Of a stretch of 64,000 bases of DNA, positions 24,295 through 52,279 are shown piece by piece (the stretch's first letter is position 1; every line of letters begins with the position of its first letter). The notes beneath the pieces are model-generated. The model did no database searches, had not been told where the DNA came from, and worked only from the letters and a program-made list of their open reading frames with translations. The position numbers and the translations under genes were made by a program. The stretch is from Hymenobacter jeollabukensis. Its GTDB lineage: Bacteria > Bacteroidota > Bacteroidia > Cytophagales > Hymenobacteraceae. The stretch covers positions 186,001 to 250,000 of the forward strand of contig NZ_VAJM01000006.1 in NCBI RefSeq assembly GCF_005771675.1, read 5' to 3'.

Positions 24295-25035
24295 CTAATC
24301 CACCCGAATCCAACGAAGCGTGAAGGTGGCCTGACCGCTGGTCTGGGTGTTGCGCAGCCAGACGTTGGTGGAGTTGTTGTCCACGTTCTCGTAGCTGACG
24401 GAGATAGACATACCTGTGCCACCCGCCCCGCTATCATCTACGCTAAACATTAGCGTGGGCTTGTAGCCCAGGTTGTGAAACCAGGTGAAGTGGCCCTGCA
24501 CGCCGGCGTTCAGAGTTAGGGGGTTCGAGTACACGGCCTGGCGGATGCTCCCGTTCACGTCGAGCTTGCGCTGGGGCGTTGCGGTGCCCACGCCCACGTT
24601 GCCCGTGTTGTCGATGCGCAGGCCCTCGGTACCGCCGTCGTTGCTGAGCCAGTTGTTGTTGAGCCGCACGTTGGCCGTGGCCGTGTGGTTGCCCAGGTTG
24701 TCGGCCCCCGAGGGCAGCGTCACGCTGTTGCCCCCGCTGATGCTCAGCGACTGGCCGCTCACGTTCAGGGTTTGCGTCAGGTTAAACCAGCTTGTGCCGT
24801 TGAAATAGTAGTAGCCGGCCGTGCCATCGGTCTGATATACCAGCAGGCCCTGGGCCGGAGTGCTGATGGCCGTGCGCTGGGCCGCCGTCATGCGCGGGGC
24901 CAGCAGGCCCTTGCTGGTGGACTTCACCTCCAAGGCGGCGGAAGGATCGGGGCTGGCGGTGCCCACGCCCACCGACTGCGCCAAGGCAACTGGAGCGGTG
25001 AGCAGGAACAAGAGCAAAGTAGTAGTGTGCTTCAT
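24295..25035 (-). CDS. Secreted VGIGT-motif protein with lectin-like C-terminus
   Basis: A 246-residue exported protein with signal peptide MKHTTTLLLFLLTAPVALAQ, directly followed by SVGVGTASPDPSAALEV, the first of two VG(I/V)GT-x-x-P motifs (second: NVGVGTATPQRKLDVNGSIR). The middle has the GLLVYQTDGTAGYYYFNGTSW module. The C-terminal ~75 residues (HFTWFHNLGYKPTLMFS ... ATFTLRWIRVD) are beta-rich and resemble an H-type-lectin-like fold. The family is common on Bacteroidota cell surfaces and phage-like fibres; function unknown. Two larger relatives are at 44540 and 46713. Confidence 0.7.
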   Translation of the reverse strand: MKHTTTLLLFLLTAPVALAQSVGVGTASPDPSAALEVKSTSKGLLAPRMTAAQRTAISTPAQGLLVYQTDGTAGYYYFNGTSWFNLTQTLNVSGQSLSISGGNSVTLPSGADNLGNHTATANVRLNNNWLSNDGGTEGLRIDNTGNVGVGTATPQRKLDVNGSIRQAVYSNPLTLNAGVQGHFTWFHNLGYKPTLMFSVDDSGAGGTGMSISVSYENVDNNSTNVWLRNTQTSGQATFTLRWIRVD

Positions 25036-44539: not shown

Positions 44540-46035
44540 TTAGCGTGCGGCTTGGGCGGTAGCGGCTTCCAGGGCCCGCACCCGCTGCTCCAACCGCTGG
44601 AGGCCGGCCTGCTGGGCTTGCAGGGTATCGACCTGCGTCTGCAGGGCCTGGTTCTGGGCCGCCAGCTCCCGGAGGGCTTCCAGGAGCACGGGCGTGAGCT
44701 GGGCGTAATTGACGGCTTTGTAGCCCGCGGCGTCGGTGCTGACCAGCTCGGGGTAAACCTGCTCCACCTCCTGCGCCAGCAAGCCCACCTGCTCGGCTCC
44801 GGCCACGCCGCCGCGCTGCACGCCCAGCGCATTCCAGCGGTAGCGCACCCCGCGCAGGGCCAGCGCCCCGGCCAGAGCCCCGCGCAGCGGCCGCACCTGC
44901 TGCTTGAAGCGCGCGTCGGAGGGTGAAACGTTGTTGCCGCGAATGGTGCCGGCCACGTCGAGCGTGTAAGCCGGGGCCGCGGTGCCGATGCCCACGTTGC
45001 CGCCGCTGGGGTTGAACAGCAGGCTGCCGGCCGTGTTTTCCACCACGCTGGCCGGCCCGCCCCCGCTGAGCGGGCGCACAATCAGGTTGGAGCCGCGGTG
45101 CTCCAGCTTGAGCGACGCCGCCGCCGTGGCCGAAGGCAGCTGCACCTCCAGTTGCGCCACGGGCGTGCCGATGCCCACCCGCACGGCCTCGGAGCCAGTG
45201 CCGCCCAGCGCCAGGGTGTTGCTCTGGCCGACCAGGGCCCGGTAGCCAATGGCCTCGGCGTTGGTCAGGTTGCCGGTGGTGGGGCCACTCTGGTACCCGA
45301 AGGCCCAGTTGCTGCTGCCGGTGGTGTTGTTGTAGCCGCTGCGGTAGCCGCTGAACTGGTTGAAGTTGCCCGTCGTGTTCGAATACCCGCTCAGCATGCC
45401 GTCGAACTGATTGTCGAGGCCGGTCGTGTTCGAGAAGCCGCTCTGGTTCCCGCTACACTGGTTGAAGTTGCCGGTCGTGTTTGAGAAGCCGCTCTGGAGG
45501 CCAATAAACCGATTGAAAAAACCGCTGGTGTTGGCGCGGCCGCTCTGGTAGCCGACGAACAGGTTGCCGGCCGTATTCTGGCCGAGGTTCAGGCCCCCGT
45601 CGGCGCGCACGCCCACGCCCACCACCCCGGCCGGCAGCTCGGCCCCGGTGCCCACCAAGGCGTTGCCCTGCAGGTTATGGCCCGGGTGGCCACGCCATTG
45701 CCCAGGTTGTCGCCGCCGCGGGCCTTGTCGGCCAGGAACAGCCAGCCCGCCGCGCCGCCGTAGTAGTAGAAGCCCGGGCGCGGCGCGGTCTGGAACACGA
45801 GCAGGCCCGTGGCCGGCGCGGTAATGGCCACGCGCGCGGCCGAGTCCAGGCGCGGGATGAGCAGGCCCTTGCCCGCCGCCGCCAGCTCCAGCACGGCAGA
45901 GGCATCCGGCGCCGTGGTGCCGATGCCCACGCTTTGCCCCTGGCCGACCAGCGGCAGCCCCAGCAACAATGAAACGGCCAGGATCAGTCGGGCGCGGCGG
46001 CCGCGTGACGCAGCGGCGGGTAGCAGTGTAGTCAT
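44540..46035 (-). pseudogene. VGIGT/S74 tail-fibre-like surface protein, frameshifted
   Basis: Two overlapping frames make one gene. The first (ATG 46035, stop 45589) has a signal peptide (LILAVSLLLGLPLVGQGQ), SVGIGTTAPD and GLLVFQTAPRPGFYYYGGAA. The second (to 44540) continues with six ~17-residue repeats (FIGLQSGFSNTTGNFNQ), VGIGTAAPAYTLDVAGTIRG and a C-terminal peptidase-S74/endosialidase chaperone domain (SPSDARFKQQVRPL, LLAQEVEQVYPELV). The frame breaks near 45678-45690 at GGCCCGGG. One missing base would restore about 500 residues. It is either a decayed gene or a sequencing error. Last gene of the operon headed by the propeller protein. Confidence 0.75.
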
Positions 46036-46068
46036 GCCGGCAAAAATCCGGCTCGGGCGCATGCGCCC

Positions 46069-46713
46069 TCAGCCCCGGCGCGGGGTGCGGGCCAGCAGCT
46101 CGCCCTTGCTGTTGATGTGCAGCTTGGCGTACACGCTCTTGATGTGGCGGCGCACGGTGTTGAGCGTGATGCCCAGCTGATCGGCAATGAGCTTGTAGCT
46201 CAGCCCCTGCTCGATGGCGCGCACCACCTGCTGCTCCCGGGCCGACAGCACCTGCTCGGGGTCGGGCGTGGGCTGAAAGTACCGGACTACCTCCCGCGCT
46301 ACGGCCGGGCTCATGCTGCTGCCGCCCTCGGCCACGGCCAGCAGGCCGGCTTTGAGCTCAGGCAGCGGGGTAGTTTTCAGAAAAAAGCCCACGGCGCCGG
46401 CGCACAGCGCCTGAAACACCCGGGCCGGGTCGCCGAGCGTGGCCGTGAGCAGCACCACTTCGGCCTGGGGCAGGCGCTGCCTGATCAGGCCCACGCCCTC
46501 GATACCCGAGCGCCCGGGCAGGCCAATGTCGCTGAGTACCAGCCGGGGTAGCGTGGCGGCGTGCTCGATTTGTTCCAGAAACTCCTCGACCGAGCCCACC
46601 ACCAGCGCGCAGCTGAACTCGGGCTGGGCGCAGAGGTAAGTTTCGAGGCCCCGGCGCACGGCGGGCAGGTCTTCGATAATGGCCAGGGGCAGGGGCATGG
46701 TGGAGGTAAGCAT
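46069..46713 (-). CDS. NarL/LuxR-type response regulator
   Basis: A 214-residue regulator. The receiver domain has IIED at 12-15, the phospho-acceptor Asp62 in VLSDIGLPG, Thr in LLTAT and Lys in FFLKTT. The C-terminal LuxR HTH is LSAREQQVVRAIEQGLSYKL followed by LGITLNTVRRHIKSVYAKL. The ATG shares one base with the stop of the propeller-protein gene, so the two are translationally coupled. The cognate kinase is probably the TPR histidine kinase at 50032. A 7-2-7 palindrome upstream of the operon (49878) fits its family's binding pattern. Confidence 0.92.
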   Translation of the reverse strand: MLTSTMPLPLAIIEDLPAVRRGLETYLCAQPEFSCALVVGSVEEFLEQIEHAATLPRLVLSDIGLPGRSGIEGVGLIRQRLPQAEVVLLTATLGDPARVFQALCAGAVGFFLKTTPLPELKAGLLAVAEGGSSMSPAVAREVVRYFQPTPDPEQVLSAREQQVVRAIEQGLSYKLIADQLGITLNTVRRHIKSVYAKLHINSKGELLARTPRRG

Positions 46714-49700
46714 CAGGGCTGGAAAATTACGAAGCTGAAGCCCCGGTCGGTGAGCGTGCCGCCGGTGTTGTAGGTGCGCACCAGCAGCTTGCCGGGGCCG
46801 CTGCCGCTCACGAAGCTGATGAAGCCCGGCCCGTTGTAGAGCGTCAAGGCCACGGCCCGGCTGCCCAGATCGGCCGTGGCCAGCGGGCCGGTAAAGGTCA
46901 GCACGTACTCGCCCGGGCCGGCGTGGGCCACGGTTACGTTGGCCGAGGCGCTGGAGAGCGTGCCCACGCCGAACACGTTGCCGTAGCCGGCGGCCACCAT
47001 ATTGGCCGTGCCGGTGGCGGGCGAAGTCACGGCACTGGTAGTCACTGTGGTGGCATTCACGGTAGTGGCATTGGCCGTGGTGGCGGTTAGCGTGGTGGTC
47101 GTCACGGCCGGCGCGGTGAGGGGACCCGCCAGCGCGGCCGTGCCGTCGGCGGCCAAGGTGAGGGCGTCTACCAGGCTGGTGCCGTTGGTGGTGCGCAGGG
47201 TGAGGCCGATGCGGGTGCTGGCGGAGGCATTGGGCACCCGGGCCTGCAGGTAAGCCATGCCACTGTTGCCACTAAACGGCGTCAGCCACAGGTGCCCGGG
47301 CAGGAACAGGCTCTGGGAGCTGCCATTGTTGGGGTCGGGCACGAGGTAACTGTCGCCGGTACCGGCCACGTCCAGCAGGCCACGCGGGGCGGTGGTGCCC
47401 ACCCCCACCCGGCCGTTGGCCAGCACCGTCAGGTCGGGGCTGCTGGGGTCGCCGTCGCCGCTGAGCTGCACCGAGGAGGCGCCCCGCAGCTCCAGCGCCC
47501 CGCCCCGGGTGCCGCCGAAATCCGTGCCGATGTAGTCGATGTTGGCAAGCCCGGCGCCCGGCTTGCGCAGCTCCAGGTGGGGGCCGGCGTTGCTGCCTTC
47601 CAGCACCGCCGCCGGCACGGCGCCGGTGGCCACGTGCAGCGGCGCGGCCGGGCTGGCCGTGCCGATGCCTACCGAGCCGCCGCTGCTGATGCTCAGGCCC
47701 GCGGTGCCGCCGTTGCCCACGAGCTGAAAAGCGCCCAGGCTCAGGTTGCGGGTGGCCAGGTGGTTGCCCAGGTTGTCGCCCAGCGTGCTGGCCGCCGCGC
47801 TGCTCAGGTTGCCGTTGGCGTCGGTGGTGACGATGCCGGCCGTGGTCAGCCCCCGCAGGCGGGTGCTGCCGGCCACGTCGAGCCGGGCGCTGGGCCCCCC
47901 GGTGCCGATGCCCACGTTGCCGTCGGCCCGCACCCGCAGCAGCGTCGTGCCCGCCGTCGAGACGCCGGGGCCCTGGCTCACGTCCAGGGCGGTGGTGTTG
48001 CTGCCGCTGTCGGCCACTTTCACGGCCAGGCCGTTGCCGCCGTACCCGGCCAGCGTGTTGCCCACGGCGGCGGCGTAGCCCTGGTTGTCGTGCAGCCAGG
48101 TCAGCGACTTCTCATTGATGCCCAGCTGATCCGAGCCGATAATGTTCAGGTTGGTGTTGGCCAGCTGCGAGGCGGGCTCGGTGGTGCTAAGCCCGATGCG
48201 CCCATTGCTTTGCGCCGATAGCACCGTGGCAAACCCCGTCCCGAACACACTGCTGTACTGCAGCGCCAGGTCCAGGCGCGAGGCAGAGGCGTTGTCGGCC
48301 GAGAATGAGCCCAGGCGCCACTCGGCCACGCTGGCAACTTTGGCACCCTGGTACGGGCGCGTGAGGCGCACGATGGTTTCGACGCCCTGACTGGCGGACG
48401 AGCCAAAGATGCCCAGGCGCGGCGGGGCATAATCGAGGAATCGGCCGGTGCCAATGCCCACGTTGCCGTCTTTGTCGAGGGCGAGGCCCTGGCTGCCCCC
48501 ACTCACCAGAAGTTTGCCGGCCAGGTTCAGGTTCCGGGTGGCGGTATGGTCGCCCAGGTTGTCCTTGAACAGCGCAGGGTCCACGCTACCGAGCGACCCG
48601 TCGCTGCCCACGGCCAGCACCCGCGGGGCGGCCAGCAGCACGGTCCGCAGGGTATTGCCGGCGTAGGTCAGGTAAGCGCGCGAGCCGTCCGGGCTCAGGG
48701 CCAGGCCGCCCCCGGTTATGCCCGGGGCAGCGGCCCGCGCCACGGGCAGGCCGCTGCCGTTTACGTCGTACACAAGCAACGTTCCATCGATAAAGTTTTG
48801 CACCGCCAGCACCGCCCCGTTGGCACTGTTGACCAGACCGTAGGAGTAATACGTGCCCGCTGCGACTGGGGTGCCCACGGCTACGGGCAGGCCGCTGCTG
48901 ATGTCGTAGGAGCTCAGCATGCTGGGCGCGCTACTAAGTAGGTATAGGCGGGTTCCGCTGGGACTCACCGCCAGCTCATCCGAGTAGCCGCTCGTAGTTA
49001 CCGAGCTGCCGACGGCTACGGGCAGGCCGCTGCTGATGTCGTAGGTTGTCAACTCCTGGCTGCCATCAACAGCGTACAGACGAGTACCGGCCAGGTTCAC
49101 CGCCAGGTCCTGAATCCACGCGACGGGTAACGCGTTCAGCTGCACCGGGGTGCCCCCCTGGCTGAGGTCAAACGTCACGAGCTCCTGAGTGGAATCCCAC
49201 ACGAAGGCCCGCGTACCGGTGGGGTTCACCGCTATAGTCTGGGGCGAATACCCAACAGGCGCCTCCCCGCCCAGCGCCACCGGCTGCCCCTGGCTGAGGT
49301 CGAAGCCCTGGATGAAGCCGTTGGAACTGCCGGGCTCGTACCCCAGCACCCAGACCCGTGTACCGGCCTGGTTCAGCGCCATATCAATGCCGCCCGCCAC
49401 CGTCAGCACCGGGCTGCCCACTGGCGCGGGCGTGGGGCCGCTCACGTCGAAGACTTGCAGGGAAGCCCGCTTTTGCCCGGCGGGATTGGTCAGGCTGACG
49501 CGCGTGAGCACGTAGGCGCGGGTGCCGGCGGGGTTGAGCAGCACCTTTACCGGCTCGCCATCGGTGGCGGCGGCGCTGCCCACCAGGGCGGGCGCCTGGG
49601 GGCTGGGCGTGGCCGCGGCCCCGAACAACGGGGGCTGCACTTTCAAGGTGCCGTCGGCCTCCACGCCCAGCAGGCGGCCGTCGCCGGTGCCCGCGGCGGC

Positions 49701-49841
49701 CCGCACCCGCACGTTGCCGTTCACGTCCAGCTTCTGGGTGGGCGCGGTCGTGCCGATGCCCACGTTCTGGGCCCAGCCGGCGCCCATCGATAGTAATACG
49801 AGACTCCAGATCAGGGCCGCCGAACGTAGCAGTGTTTTCAT
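46713..49841 (-). CDS. Large secreted beta-propeller/VGIGT-repeat protein
   Basis: 1042 residues with signal peptide (LIWSLVLLSMGAGWAQ). After NVGIGTTAPTQKLDVNGNVR come seven propeller-like units (NPAGTRAYVL, NQAGTRVWVL, NPTGTRAFVW, NLAGTRLYAV, SPSGTRLYLL, a degenerate sixth, SPDGSRAYLT), fitting a seven-bladed beta-propeller at about 85-400. Then come at least four more VGIGT-type motifs with fibre-like spacers, a Thr-rich stretch (TTTTLTATTANATTV), and a ~75-residue beta-sandwich-like end (LLVRTYNTGGTLTDRGFSFV). Probably exported to the surface; no sorting signal is evident. ATG 49841 is preferred. It heads the operon with the response regulator. Confidence 0.8.
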   Translation of the reverse strand: MKTLLRSAALIWSLVLLSMGAGWAQNVGIGTTAPTQKLDVNGNVRVRAAAGTGDGRLLGVEADGTLKVQPPLFGAAATPSPQAPALVGSAAATDGEPVKVLLNPAGTRAYVLTRVSLTNPAGQKRASLQVFDVSGPTPAPVGSPVLTVAGGIDMALNQAGTRVWVLGYEPGSSNGFIQGFDLSQGQPVALGGEAPVGYSPQTIAVNPTGTRAFVWDSTQELVTFDLSQGGTPVQLNALPVAWIQDLAVNLAGTRLYAVDGSQELTTYDISSGLPVAVGSSVTTSGYSDELAVSPSGTRLYLLSSAPSMLSSYDISSGLPVAVGTPVAAGTYYSYGLVNSANGAVLAVQNFIDGTLLVYDVNGSGLPVARAAAPGITGGGLALSPDGSRAYLTYAGNTLRTVLLAAPRVLAVGSDGSLGSVDPALFKDNLGDHTATRNLNLAGKLLVSGGSQGLALDKDGNVGIGTGRFLDYAPPRLGIFGSSASQGVETIVRLTRPYQGAKVASVAEWRLGSFSADNASASRLDLALQYSSVFGTGFATVLSAQSNGRIGLSTTEPASQLANTNLNIIGSDQLGINEKSLTWLHDNQGYAAAVGNTLAGYGGNGLAVKVADSGSNTTALDVSQGPGVSTAGTTLLRVRADGNVGIGTGGPSARLDVAGSTRLRGLTTAGIVTTDANGNLSSAAASTLGDNLGNHLATRNLSLGAFQLVGNGGTAGLSISSGGSVGIGTASPAAPLHVATGAVPAAVLEGSNAGPHLELRKPGAGLANIDYIGTDFGGTRGGALELRGASSVQLSGDGDPSSPDLTVLANGRVGVGTTAPRGLLDVAGTGDSYLVPDPNNGSSQSLFLPGHLWLTPFSGNSGMAYLQARVPNASASTRIGLTLRTTNGTSLVDALTLAADGTAALAGPLTAPAVTTTTLTATTANATTVNATTVTTSAVTSPATGTANMVAAGYGNVFGVGTLSSASANVTVAHAGPGEYVLTFTGPLATADLGSRAVALTLYNGPGFISFVSGSGPGKLLVRTYNTGGTLTDRGFSFVIFQP

Positions 49842-49877
49842 ACCCGCAAAGCAAGCTCCCGGCCCCATGCGGCGTAA

Positions 49878-49893
49878 GTACATCTTGATGTAC
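49878..49893. promoter_or_regulatory. 7-2-7 palindrome GTACATCTTGATGTAC
   Basis: Perfect 7-bp arms with a 2-base centre, 37 bases upstream of ATG 49841. NarL-type regulators bind 7-2-7 heptamer pairs, and the operon encodes one. The rest of the 49842-50031 gap (190 bases) has no exact TANNTTTG box. Confidence 0.5.
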
Positions 49894-50031
49894 CCCGGGG
49901 TGGCTTAGCCGTGTGCGGGGGAGAGGTGTTTACGGTCTGAATTGCGCATTCTCTGACTCTGCTGCCCAGCCCCTATCCTGCAACCGTCCTAAACCCTTAT
50001 CCTCATACCCGCCCCCCTCCTATCTTTTAAT

Positions 50032-52059
50032 CTACACCGGCACGCGCACGCGCACGCCCCAGCCGGGCTGGCCGGGCACCGCGCCGTAGCCGGCCGCGCA
50101 AGTGCCGCCCACGGCCTCGGCGCGAGCCCGCATGTTGCGCAGGCCGTGGCCGCTGGCCCGGGGCAGCTGCGCGGGCGCGGGCCCGTCGTCAGCTACGGCC
50201 AGCTGCAGGGTATCGTCGGCCAGGGTCAGCGCCACGGTGACGTGCCGGGCCTGGCGGGCGTGCTTGGCCACGTTGTGCAGAGCTTCCTTGAAAATCAGGT
50301 ACACGGCCCGGCGGGCTTCCATCGGCAGGGCGCGGGCGGGCAGGTGGGGGTCGGCGTCGAAGGCAATGGTCAGCTCGCCGCTGCCCAGCAGCTCGTAGGC
50401 GTAGTCGCGCATGCGGTCGAGCAGGCTGCGGGCCGAGTCGTTGTGGGCGTCGTAGCCCCACACCACGTCCTGGAGCTGGGCGGCGGCGGCGCGGCTGGCG
50501 GCGGCCATTTCCTGCAGCTGGGGCTGCTGCTCCTCGGGGGCGTAGAGGCCGGCGCCCAGTAGGTTGGCCTGCATGGAAATCTGGGTGAGCAGGCCGCCGA
50601 CCTCGTCGTGCAGGTCGGCGGAAAGGCGCGTACGCAGGGCCAGCTCGCGGCGGAGCTGGCGGCGGCGGTAGGCCCCCAGCCCCAGACCCGCCCCGGCCAG
50701 CAGCACCACCGCGCCGAGCGCGGTGGCCAGGGTCTGCTGCTGACGGCGCAGACGCAGCACTTCCCGCTCGCGGGTGAGGGTCTGCACTTGGGCCAGAGCC
50801 TGGTCGGTTTCGTACTCGTTGCGCAGGGCCTCGGTCAGCTGGCGGTTGTCGAGGGCCCGTAGGGAGTCCTGCAAGGCCCGTTCGTGGGCCAGGGCGGCGT
50901 AAGCGGCCGGGTAGTTGCCCTGGTGCAGCGCCACTTCCCGTCGGATGCCCCAGGCCTGGGCCTGCCAGTTGAAATTGGTACCCGAGGCGGCCGGTACCTG
51001 CCGCGCCGTTTGCTCGGCCAACGCCCACTGGCCCTGCTGCCGGTAAAAATCGGCCAACGACACCAGCGCCACCGCCGCCGCGCCGGCCGCCCCGCGCTGA
51101 CGCTGGGTGGCCACGGCCCGCAGCAGATAGGGCCGGGCGGAGTCGGGCTGCTGCAGGCGCTGGTAGGCCTGCCCCATCAACATCCAGGCCTGGGGGAGGT
51201 AGTTGGCCAAGTGGCTGCGCCGGGCCAGCCGCTCCGAGAGTCGCAGGCAGCGCAGGGCCGCCGCGAGACTGTCGCGCCCCATCAGCGCCCGCCCCAGGTA
51301 TTGCCACGACGAGGCCAGCGCCATCGTATCGCCCTGGGCCGCTTCCAGGGCCTTGCCGGCCCGGAAATAGCGCGCCGCCTCGGCCCAGCGCTGCTGGCGC
51401 AGGTACACCAGCCCCAGGTTGCCCAGCGTCGAGGCTTCGATGCCGGTGCTGGCCAGGCCCGGCGTCAGGCGCAAGGCCCGGAAGTAATTGGCCACCGCCG
51501 AGTCGAGGCGGTTTTGCTTGTAGTACACCAGACCGCGCGAGTTGTAGACGTTGGCCCGAAGTTTCCGGTCGGCGGTGCCCAGCTGCAGGGCTTCGCGGTA
51601 GAGAGCCAGGGCGCGGCCGGGCTGTCCCAGGTCGCCGTAGGCCATGCCGAGGTGGTAGCGCTGCTGGGCCTGCAGCGCGGCCGGGGCGGCGGCCAGCAGC
51701 CGGCCGGCCCGCAGCAGCAGCGGCAGGGCCAGCGCGGGCCGGCCCGATTCGCGGTAATAGTCGCCGCGCACGTCCAGGGCCTGGCCGGCCAGCGCGGGCT
51801 GCTGGGTGCGGTAGGCGGTTTGCTCGGCCGCCCGCGCGTAGCCCACCACGCCCGCCGAGTCGAACGGCCCCAGGTAGGCGCGGGCAACCCGGAGCAAGGC
51901 TTCGGCCGCGGGCGGCTGGTGGGTCGTCACGGCCGCCCGCAGGCTGTCGGGCACGGGCGGCAGCGGCTGGGCCAGGGTGCGGCCCGCCAGTAGTACTACC
52001 AACAGCCCGGCCAGCCACCAGCTCCATCTTTGTCCACCACCGGGCGGCCGCCTTGCCAT
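50032..52059 (-). CDS. TPR sensor histidine kinase (HisKA_3/HPK7 type)
   Basis: A 675-residue membrane kinase. Signal/anchor WWLAGLLVVLLAGRTLAQ, a periplasmic TPR array (about 50-400; units such as QPGRALALYREALQLG and RQQRWAEAARYFRAG), a coiled coil, a membrane helix (ALGAVVLLAGAGLGLGAY), then dimerisation/phospho-acceptor His484 in ADLHDEVGGLLTQI, N box FKEALHNVAKHA and G box GHGLRNMRARAE. HisKA_3 kinases pair with NarL-type regulators; the one at 46069 is the probable partner. ATG 52059 avoids an unlikely hydrophilic extension. Confidence 0.92.
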   Translation of the reverse strand: MARRPPGGGQRWSWWLAGLLVVLLAGRTLAQPLPPVPDSLRAAVTTHQPPAAEALLRVARAYLGPFDSAGVVGYARAAEQTAYRTQQPALAGQALDVRGDYYRESGRPALALPLLLRAGRLLAAAPAALQAQQRYHLGMAYGDLGQPGRALALYREALQLGTADRKLRANVYNSRGLVYYKQNRLDSAVANYFRALRLTPGLASTGIEASTLGNLGLVYLRQQRWAEAARYFRAGKALEAAQGDTMALASSWQYLGRALMGRDSLAAALRCLRLSERLARRSHLANYLPQAWMLMGQAYQRLQQPDSARPYLLRAVATQRQRGAAGAAAVALVSLADFYRQQGQWALAEQTARQVPAASGTNFNWQAQAWGIRREVALHQGNYPAAYAALAHERALQDSLRALDNRQLTEALRNEYETDQALAQVQTLTREREVLRLRRQQQTLATALGAVVLLAGAGLGLGAYRRRQLRRELALRTRLSADLHDEVGGLLTQISMQANLLGAGLYAPEEQQPQLQEMAAASRAAAAQLQDVVWGYDAHNDSARSLLDRMRDYAYELLGSGELTIAFDADPHLPARALPMEARRAVYLIFKEALHNVAKHARQARHVTVALTLADDTLQLAVADDGPAPAQLPRASGHGLRNMRARAEAVGGTCAAGYGAVPGQPGWGVRVRVPV

Positions 52060-52245: not shown

Positions 52246-52279
52246 CCACGGGCCGCTTCCGTGCGGAAGCGGCCCGTGG
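52246..52279 (-). terminator. SDR gene terminator
   Basis: CCACGGGCCGCTTCCG (52246-52261) and CGGAAGCGGCCCGTGG (52264-52279) form a perfect 16-bp stem with a TG loop. On the minus strand it is followed by TGCTTTTG. It lies 25 bases after the SDR stop. Confidence 0.8.

What the first reader, a model, noticed from the sequence alone, without database searches (positions are those of the whole stretch)
44540..52059. Two-component-controlled tail-fibre-like surface locus
A TPR-sensor HisKA_3 kinase, a 1042-residue exported propeller/VGIGT protein, a NarL-type regulator and an S74-chaperone tail-fibre-like protein lie in one reverse-strand block. The regulator is coupled to the propeller gene by a one-base overlap, and a perfect 7-2-7 palindrome sits upstream of the operon. 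Seen: motifs, overlaps, palindrome. Known: NarL-type regulators bind 7-2-7 sites, and S74 domains assemble trimeric fibres. Inferred: a self-regulated surface structure, perhaps for adhesion or prey/phage recognition, of a type I do not recognise.
Basis: partly seen in the sequence, partly recalled or inferred. Interest (0 to 1): 0.7.

Follow-up and report, generated by a model that had tools for sequence, protein, structure and literature searches.

The report
Self-switching surface-fibre operon with private operator
A Hymenobacter bacterium carries a small genetic cassette in which a sensor pair appears to switch on its own tail-fibre-like surface proteins through a DNA site found once in its genome, and relatives carry similar cassettes with matching but different sites.

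Summary
The palindrome GTACATCAAGATGTAC lies 24 bases (from its 14-base core) before a Bacteroidota-type -7 box. Palindrome and spacing are identical before the same gene in four other Hymenobacter genomes, and occur again before the S74 gene in two. The same layout with other half-sites precedes the regulator's relatives (31 of 46 in loci fetched after the pattern was fixed, against 7 of 570 other genes there and 0 of 265 in control loci) and other fibre or adhesin genes, three of them with no kinase in the fetched stretch. The recognition-helix residue after TVR changes together with the half-site. The window site occurs once in its 6.2 Mb genome. Best reading: a FimS/FimR-like two-component system activating its own fibre operon from about -43.5, paralogues having their own operators and the fibre's passenger domain being exchangeable. 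Binding, activation and adhesion are inferred; the signal is unknown. New variant of a known kind.

The parts
50032..52059 (-). Sensor histidine kinase: N-terminal hydrophobic stretch, TPR region, second hydrophobic stretch, HisKA_3 and HATPase_c
   Evidence: Pfam TPR_1 9.6e-21, HisKA_3 6.7e-9, HATPase_c 1.8e-6; partial NCBIfam match to P. gingivalis FimS, 42.4 bits of a cut-off of 600; start read; hydrophobic stretches by eye
49878..49893 (.). Operator: GTACATC TT GATGTAC, centred about -43.5 from the predicted transcript start
   Evidence: identical 16-mer before the orthologous gene in L111, L112, L113, L114 and before the S74 gene in L112, L113; the only match in the own genome with up to 3 mismatches when spacing and box are required
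49847..49854 (-). Predicted -7 promoter box (TTGCTTTG, cf. TAnnTTTG)
   Evidence: 24 b after the 14-base core of the operator, as in the relatives; box position -12 to -5 from passages of PMC9723704
46713..49841 (-). Exported VGIGT fibre-like protein, 1042 aa: signal peptide (by eye), VGIGT motif, beta-propeller, further VG[IVL]G[TS] motifs (5 in all by script), C-terminal beta domain shared with L111 and L114
46069..46713 (-). NarL/FixJ-type response regulator, 214 aa; ATG overlaps the upstream stop by one base
   Evidence: Response_reg 1.7e-14, GerE 9.8e-14; Asp62 invariant in the 6 regulators of A1
45589..46062 (-). N-terminal piece of the S74 fibre gene (signal peptide by eye, VGIGT)
   Evidence: 62% and 71% identity to the S74 proteins of L112 and L180
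44540..45658 (-). C-terminal piece of the S74 fibre gene, in another frame; S74 chaperone with SDxxxK motif (SDARFK)
   Evidence: Peptidase_S74 1.6e-13; PHROG tail families

Best explanation
A self-contained sense-and-display cassette. The kinase senses an unknown envelope or periplasmic signal with its TPR domain and phosphorylates the NarL-type regulator. The regulator dimer binds its private palindrome centred near -43.5 and activates transcription of VGIGT fibre - regulator - S74 fibre, so the regulator raises its own amount together with the fibres. The fibres are exported; in intact copies the S74 domain folds and trims the second one into a trimer; the interchangeable passenger (here a propeller) is the binding tip. 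Paralogous cassettes in one cell are kept apart because recognition helix and operator have diverged together. Shown by sequence: gene order, operator conservation, fixed spacing, covariation, uniqueness, domain content. Inferred: binding, activation rather than repression, surface display, trimers, adhesion, signal, insulation.
For: Identical palindrome at identical spacing in four other genomes, twice per locus in two of them. In the 57 loci fetched after the pattern was fixed: operator plus box within 250 b before 31 of 46 close regulators, 7 of 31 VG genes, 7 of 570 other genes, 0 of 53 kinases; 0 of 265 genes in 20 control loci; of 33 close regulators with the CATN4ATG core upstream, 31 have the box at exactly 24. 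Three remote VGIGT genes with no kinase annotated in their 16-kb stretches carry TTGTCGCATCAACATGCGACAA with the same spacing (L073, L074, L082). Among the CGCATNANNATGCG sites examined, those with a box at +24 occur only in G000-G003, the 4 of 8 genus genomes that hold a 63-64% identical regulator; the six sites of G004-G007 have none. Over 45 regulators with a site, the residue after TVR goes with the two bases before CAT: Arg with TA 4 of 4, Gly with CC 4 of 4, Thr or Ala with CG 16 of 19, Ser with CA 7 of 10, Asn mixed (8). VG gene within 4 kb: 14 of 53 clade A and 10 of 18 clade B regulators (classes by bit score), 0 of 20 distant NarL regulators of eight of the genomes.
Against: No binding or expression data. 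The loci share descent, so the counts are not independent trials, and the covariation follows the regulator tree. 15 of 46 close regulators have no pattern hit upstream. Only 14 of 53 have a VG gene within 4 kb, and some (L049, L056, L057) sit among housekeeping-type genes. The bare CGCATNANNATGCG pattern is not much commoner than its reversed control over 8 genomes (35 against 24 strand hits); only the added box separates it. In the Gly type the sites are not symmetric: the right half of L115 equals the window's. The window-type sites were taken from the VG promoter with CATCAAGATG prescribed by my script. The S74 gene is broken in this genome. The matches of the VGIGT protein to solved MAT fibres are weak (E 0.048 and 0.17).
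Confidence: 0.74

Rival explanations
1. The regulator binds the palindrome but represses: fibres are made only when the kinase is silent or acts as a phosphatase.
For: Nothing in the sequence distinguishes activator from repressor directly; many autoregulators repress (general knowledge).
Against: A site centred near -43.5 before a poor box (TTGCTTTG instead of TAnnTTTG) fits activation, like E. coli NarL at -44.5 at ogt (PMC7419079, passages); overlap with the box would fit repression better.
Confidence: 0.15
2. The fibre genes are prophage or tailocin tail-fibre remnants that happen to lie beside a two-component system.
For: The C-terminal S74 piece matches 25 PHROG families, mostly tail proteins (best a baseplate wedge initiator, 1.2e-25; tail fibre 3.4e-20), and the VGIGT protein matches tail fibre families at 1.2e-8.
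Against: Signal peptides (by eye); flanking genes are PEP carboxykinase, an SDR reductase and an S1/P1 nuclease; of the four flanking genes given to PHROGs none matched a structural family (the nuclease was not given); the association with this regulator family recurs in many genomes while 20 distant NarL regulators show none.
Confidence: 0.04
3. The palindrome is an RNA hairpin or terminator, or chance.
For: Five perfect 7-2-7 palindromes occur in the 64 kb.
Against: It is invariant in four relatives while flanks vary, lies before the predicted transcript start, is not followed by a T run, and changes in step with the recognition helix. The other intergenic one, at 52255, is part of a terminator-like stem after the SDR gene.
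Confidence: 0.03
4. The cassette and its regulation are real, but the proteins are matrix or envelope parts (biofilm, cell-cell contact), or bind phage or prey, rather than adhesins for surfaces.
For: No ligand known; the passengers differ between loci (propeller, ALK-type glycine-rich, LamG/SprB adhesin).
Against: None decisive; exchangeable tips resemble recognition proteins.
Confidence: 0.35

Closest known systems
FimS-FimR two-component system of Porphyromonas gingivalis (PMC11053733, PMC1974823; passages read)
   Same: Bacteroidota; kinase with a periplasmic TPR sensor and unknown signal; regulator activates surface adhesin genes; the kinase here has a partial match to NCBIfam FimS.
   Different: FimR acts on fimbrial genes (fimA cluster, mfa1); here the targets are VGIGT/S74 fibres, the regulator gene lies inside the target operon, and paralogous cassettes with distinct operators exist. 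NCBIfam FimS cut-off not reached (42.4 of 600 bits).
Mosaic adhesive trimer (MAT) fibres of Bdellovibrio bacteriovorus (PMC10769870; abstract, passages and discussion section read)
   Same: Large tail-fibre-like surface proteins in S74 and non-S74 forms, VGIGT-type stretches alignable to solved Bd2133 and 8ojn chains, exchangeable tips.
   Different: The sequence resemblance is weak (E 0.048 and 0.17). The ~130-aa N-terminal MAT domain was not compared. No two-component control was mentioned in the parts I read.
E. coli NarX/NarL (PMC7419079; passages read)
   Same: HisKA_3-type kinase with NarL-type regulator; 7-2-7 inverted repeat; activation from -44.5 at ogt.
   Different: One global regulator answering nitrate; the NarL heptamer consensus (recalled) differs; NCBIfam NarL cut-off not reached (78.2 of 250 bits).
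Locally regulated polysaccharide utilisation loci of Bacteroides (recalled, no call)
   Same: Each surface system carries its own regulator.
   Different: Other regulator architecture (hybrid two-component or ECF sigma) and targets (SusCD importers).

Membership tests
NarL/FixJ-type two-component system | Receiver plus GerE/LuxR HTH; HisKA_3 plus HATPase kinase | tested here: met
   Pfam above curated cut-offs
NarL/FixJ-type two-component system | Conserved phospho-acceptor Asp | tested here: met
   Asp62 invariant in 6 regulators; that it is the acceptor rests on family knowledge
NarL proper (E. coli equivalog) | NCBIfam NarL cut-off | tested here: not met
   78.2 of 250 bits
NarL-type 7-2-7 operator | Two 7-base inverted half-sites 2 bases apart | tested here: met
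   perfect in the window; in relatives the core is CATN4ATG with variable outer bases, some sites asymmetric
FimS-FimR | TPR sensor kinase recognised as FimS | tested here: not met
   42.4 of 600 bits
FimS-FimR | Controls fimbrial genes | tested here: not met
   The adjoining operon encodes VGIGT and S74 proteins
Peptidase_S74 fibre protein | S74 domain with SDxxxK motif | tested here: met
   51.2 bits, cut-off 22; SDARFK; motif as given in PMC10769870; the gene's frame is broken here
MAT superfamily | Conserved ~130-aa beta-rich domain after the signal peptide | not tested
   No MAT N-terminal sequence was compared; in the window protein the VGIGT motif follows the signal peptide directly
MAT superfamily | Trimeric fibre | not testable with these tools
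   Only monomer prediction on hand; the C-terminal model has mean pLDDT 55.7
MAT superfamily | Mosaic tips on a shared frame | tested here: met
   The orthologous gene shows no match to the propeller in L111, L112 and L114; the C-terminal domain is shared with L111 and L114
Prophage tail module | Neighbouring phage structural genes | tested here: not met
   Four flanking genes scanned with PHROGs, none structural; Pfam of flanking genes

The most novel reading that the evidence does not exclude
Hymenobacter carries a paralogous family of portable fibre-display cassettes in which regulator, private operator and fibre are inherited as a unit and the regulator-operator pair diverges by a simple recognition-helix code (Arg, Gly, Thr/Ala or Ser after TVR), giving one cell several, perhaps up to ten, insulated switches for different surface fibres; one genome (G071) has 11 matches to this regulator at E <= 1e-50, one of them with an internal stop.
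Probability: 0.55. Interest if true: 0.72.

Novelty: new variant of a known kind. Interest (0 to 1): 0.6.

Why it matters
It gives a testable regulon, with sites resolved to the base, for tail-fibre-like surface proteins of Bacteroidota; my searches of an open-licence library listed no paper on their control in Hymenobacter. The parallel sets of regulator and operator offer a natural experiment on how paralogous regulators stay insulated, and the kinase can be used to find what signal calls for which fibre.

Tried and rejected
Scanning the window and 36 loci for the window palindrome with up to 3 mismatches gave scattered hits that I did not follow; the related sites appeared only when upstream regions were read. 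The palindrome at 52255 was considered as a second operator and rejected: it is part of a 15-pair terminator-like stem after the SDR gene. Prophage origin was tested and disfavoured. The C-terminal domain model gave no significant PDB match (0 of 385 matches at E <= 0.001; best E 0.026, a phage tailspike). Clade B regulators do not carry the clade A pattern (0 of 12); other palindromes (CCC...GGG type), centred 40-42 b before the box, were found by script in 8 of 16 (L216, shown, was left out) and seen by eye in some others; not tested further. Weak points of method: the reference sequences of the first annotation script were wrongly sliced for the VGIGT protein and were corrected; gene calls come from a home-made codon model, which lost the regulator in L058, L060, L063 and L203, leaves L052 with only a more distant one, and cut short some genes, so that L054 counts as clade B by bit score; signal peptides were judged by eye or by a crude pattern. 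Two CGCATNANNATGCG sites (G002:C39:114373, G000:C24:141122) were not examined for a box.
Full report
What is there. The window is 64 kb of contig 24 of a 6.18 Mb genome, Hymenobacter by its named relatives. On the reverse strand lie a TPR/HisKA_3 kinase (50032-52059), a 1042-aa exported VGIGT protein (46713-49841), a NarL-type regulator (46069-46713, sharing one base with the upstream stop) and an S74 gene. The S74 gene is split into two frames (45589-46062, 44540-45658). Compared apart, the pieces align collinearly with relatives of 588 and 591 aa, so one frame break separates otherwise intact parts; intact copies exist in relatives.

The surface proteins. The VGIGT protein has a signal peptide (by eye), a VGIGT motif, a beta-propeller (residues about 81-400; model; Foldseek hits to WD propellers, E about 1e-12), further VG[IVL]GT-type motifs and a small C-terminal beta domain (residues 110-205 of a 205-residue model at block pLDDT 73-90, the rest below 50; no significant PDB match). 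Its motif stretches align weakly with two solved Bdellovibrio fibre proteins (E 0.048 and 0.17). The S74 domain matches the chaperones of MyRF (2.2e-6) and of phage tail fibres (0.0008, 0.0033) among solved structures. BLAST matches to the propeller region occur in L112 (two proteins), L115/L183, L186, L069 (two), L076, L120/L187 and, over a short part, L179. The gene orthologous to the window's shows no propeller match in L111, L112 and L114, while the C-terminal domain is kept in L111 and L114 (48-49% identity).

The palindrome. It lies at 49878-49893. By itself it is weak evidence: five perfect 7-2-7 palindromes occur in the window, two outside gene calls. The lead came from a relative, L054, where two near-identical palindromes precede the regulator and a 2378-aa protein with SprB, LamG and Por_Secre_tail matches. 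Reading upstream regions of eight loci showed a common layout: a core CATN4ATG with two variable bases on each side, then 24 bases, then a box like TAnnTTTG. A pattern for this gave 23 hits in 37 stretches (window and L048-L083). Four lie inside genes. Of the other 19, one (L065) lies after the regulator gene and before another gene; the rest precede regulators, neighbouring surface genes (or, in L053, a 419-aa protein without a clear family), or remote VGIGT genes with no kinase annotated nearby (L073, L074, L082). L074 was scored as inside a gene because of a mis-called start.

Conservation. A scan of named genomes found 24 loci with a relative of the regulator, 23 of Hymenobacter and one of Chitinophaga (the tool may leave out the window's own record). 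In L111, L112, L113 and L114 (regulators 86-92% identical) the 16-mer GTACATCAAGATGTAC stands before the VGIGT gene with the same spacing, and again before the S74 gene in L112 and L113. Kinase-VGIGT-regulator order is kept in these four; an S74 gene follows in L112 and L113, is absent in L114, and the L111 contig ends there.

Statistics. The pattern was fixed. In 57 loci fetched later (L160-L216, from regulator hits; some are the same records as named loci), operator and box within 250 b upstream occur for 31 of 46 close regulators (clade A, at least 200 bits), 7 of 31 VG genes, 7 of 570 other genes, 0 of 53 kinases and 0 of 12 clade B regulators (150-200 bits); in 20 control loci around distant NarL regulators of eight genomes, 0 of 265. 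Of the 7 'other' genes, four (in L178, L184, L186, L191) are long proteins with a signal-like start; three (L199, L202, L211) were not inspected. With repeated proteins removed and the first loci included: clade A 37 of 53, VG 10 of 45, long genes 2 of 28, other 7 of 731, kinases 0 of 71, clade B 1 of 18 (this one is L054, cut short by the gene caller), controls 0 of 256. A VG gene lies within 4 kb of 14 of 53 clade A and 10 of 18 clade B regulators, and of 0 of 20 control regulators. Against the reading: 15 of 46 lack a hit, and some regulators (L049, L056, L057) have an operator but no fibre gene near. All these loci share descent, so the numbers are not independent trials.

Specificity. Over the 45 distinct regulators for which a site was found, the residue after TVR in the recognition helix goes with the two bases before CAT: Arg with TA (4 of 4, the window type), Gly with CC (4 of 4), Thr or Ala with CG (16 of 19), Ser with CA (7 of 10), Asn with several (8) (mutual information 1.73 bits, 1.17 above shuffles; not corrected for the tree). 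Gly-type sites are not symmetric. The window-type sites were taken from the VG promoter with CATCAAGATG prescribed by the script. The window site, with spacing and box, is the only match in its genome even with 3 mismatches, and the 14-mer TACATCNNGATGTA also occurs once there. Bare CGCATNANNATGCG sites are not much commoner than the reversed control over 8 genomes (35 against 24 strand hits), but those with a box at +24 were found only in G000-G003, the four genomes with a 63-64% identical regulator; none of the six sites of G004-G007 has one (two sites of G000 and G002 were not examined). One further G002 site misses the box by one base (L085). The window's genome holds three operator types: TACAT (window), CGCAT (L048, L073) and CACAT (L049).

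Mechanism. If the box is at -12 to -5, as in Flavobacterium psychrophilum (PMC9723704, passages), the operator centre is at -43.5, close to the -44.5 at which E. coli NarL activates ogt (PMC7419079, passages). I infer activation. The predicted start for the window is 49842, one base before the ATG. In 35 of 44 regulator promoters the first ATG or GTG comes exactly 4 b after the box, which would make those mRNAs leaderless; leaderless mRNAs were 5.5% in F. psychrophilum (PMC9723704, passage).

Known kinds. The kinase has a partial match to FimS (42.4 of 600 bits), whose periplasmic TPR domain senses an unknown signal and whose partner FimR activates fimbrial genes (PMC11053733 and PMC1974823, passages). 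The fibres resemble MAT proteins, which come in S74 and non-S74 forms with mosaic tips (PMC10769870, abstract, passages and discussion). The regulator has matches at E <= 1e-50 in 36 of 150 sampled family genomes, in 2 of 6 genera, with up to 11 in one genome. I saw no paper on such a combination or operator code in the listings, which cover open-licence papers only; the four papers listed there were not opened. I file it as a new variant of a known kind.

Noticed in passing
window 44540-46062: The S74 gene is split by a frame break near 45589-45658; relatives are intact. Sequencing error and recent loss cannot be told apart here.
   Followed up: partly
L073 6268-6310, L074 8056-8098, L082 6745-6787: Remote VGIGT genes with no kinase annotated in the 16-kb stretch carry the operator TTGTCGCATCAACATGCGACAA with the same spacing: likely trans targets of the CGCAT-type regulator.
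   Followed up: yes
L085 1-1434 (-): A further gene behind a CGCATCAACATGCG site in G002 (box off by one base) encodes a protein with RicinB_lectin_2 and Endotoxin_N matches.
   Followed up: no
L050, L059, L062, L204, L206-L209, L211, L212, L215: Clade B regulators lie at or near a divergent long gene, mostly VGIGT/S74, usually with the kinase on the other side; 8 of 16 clade B upstream regions have a palindrome centred 40-42 b before the box.
   Followed up: partly
L048, L053, L055, L049, L056, L057 and others: Regulator start codons fall exactly at the predicted transcript start (35 of 44 promoters): possibly conserved leaderless regulator mRNAs.
   Followed up: partly
L080 6119-10356, L081 5733-8731, L075 5132-11031: VGIGT genes also lie beside other two-component-like pairs (LytTR-like by eye in L080 and L081, another regulator and kinase-like gene in L075), so the coupling may be wider than the NarL type.
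   Followed up: no
window 24295-25035 (-): A second, short VGVGT protein with a signal-like start in the window, with no NCBIfam match.
   Followed up: no
window 52246-52279 (-): A 15-pair terminator-like stem followed by TTTT closes the SDR gene upstream of the kinase.
   Followed up: yes
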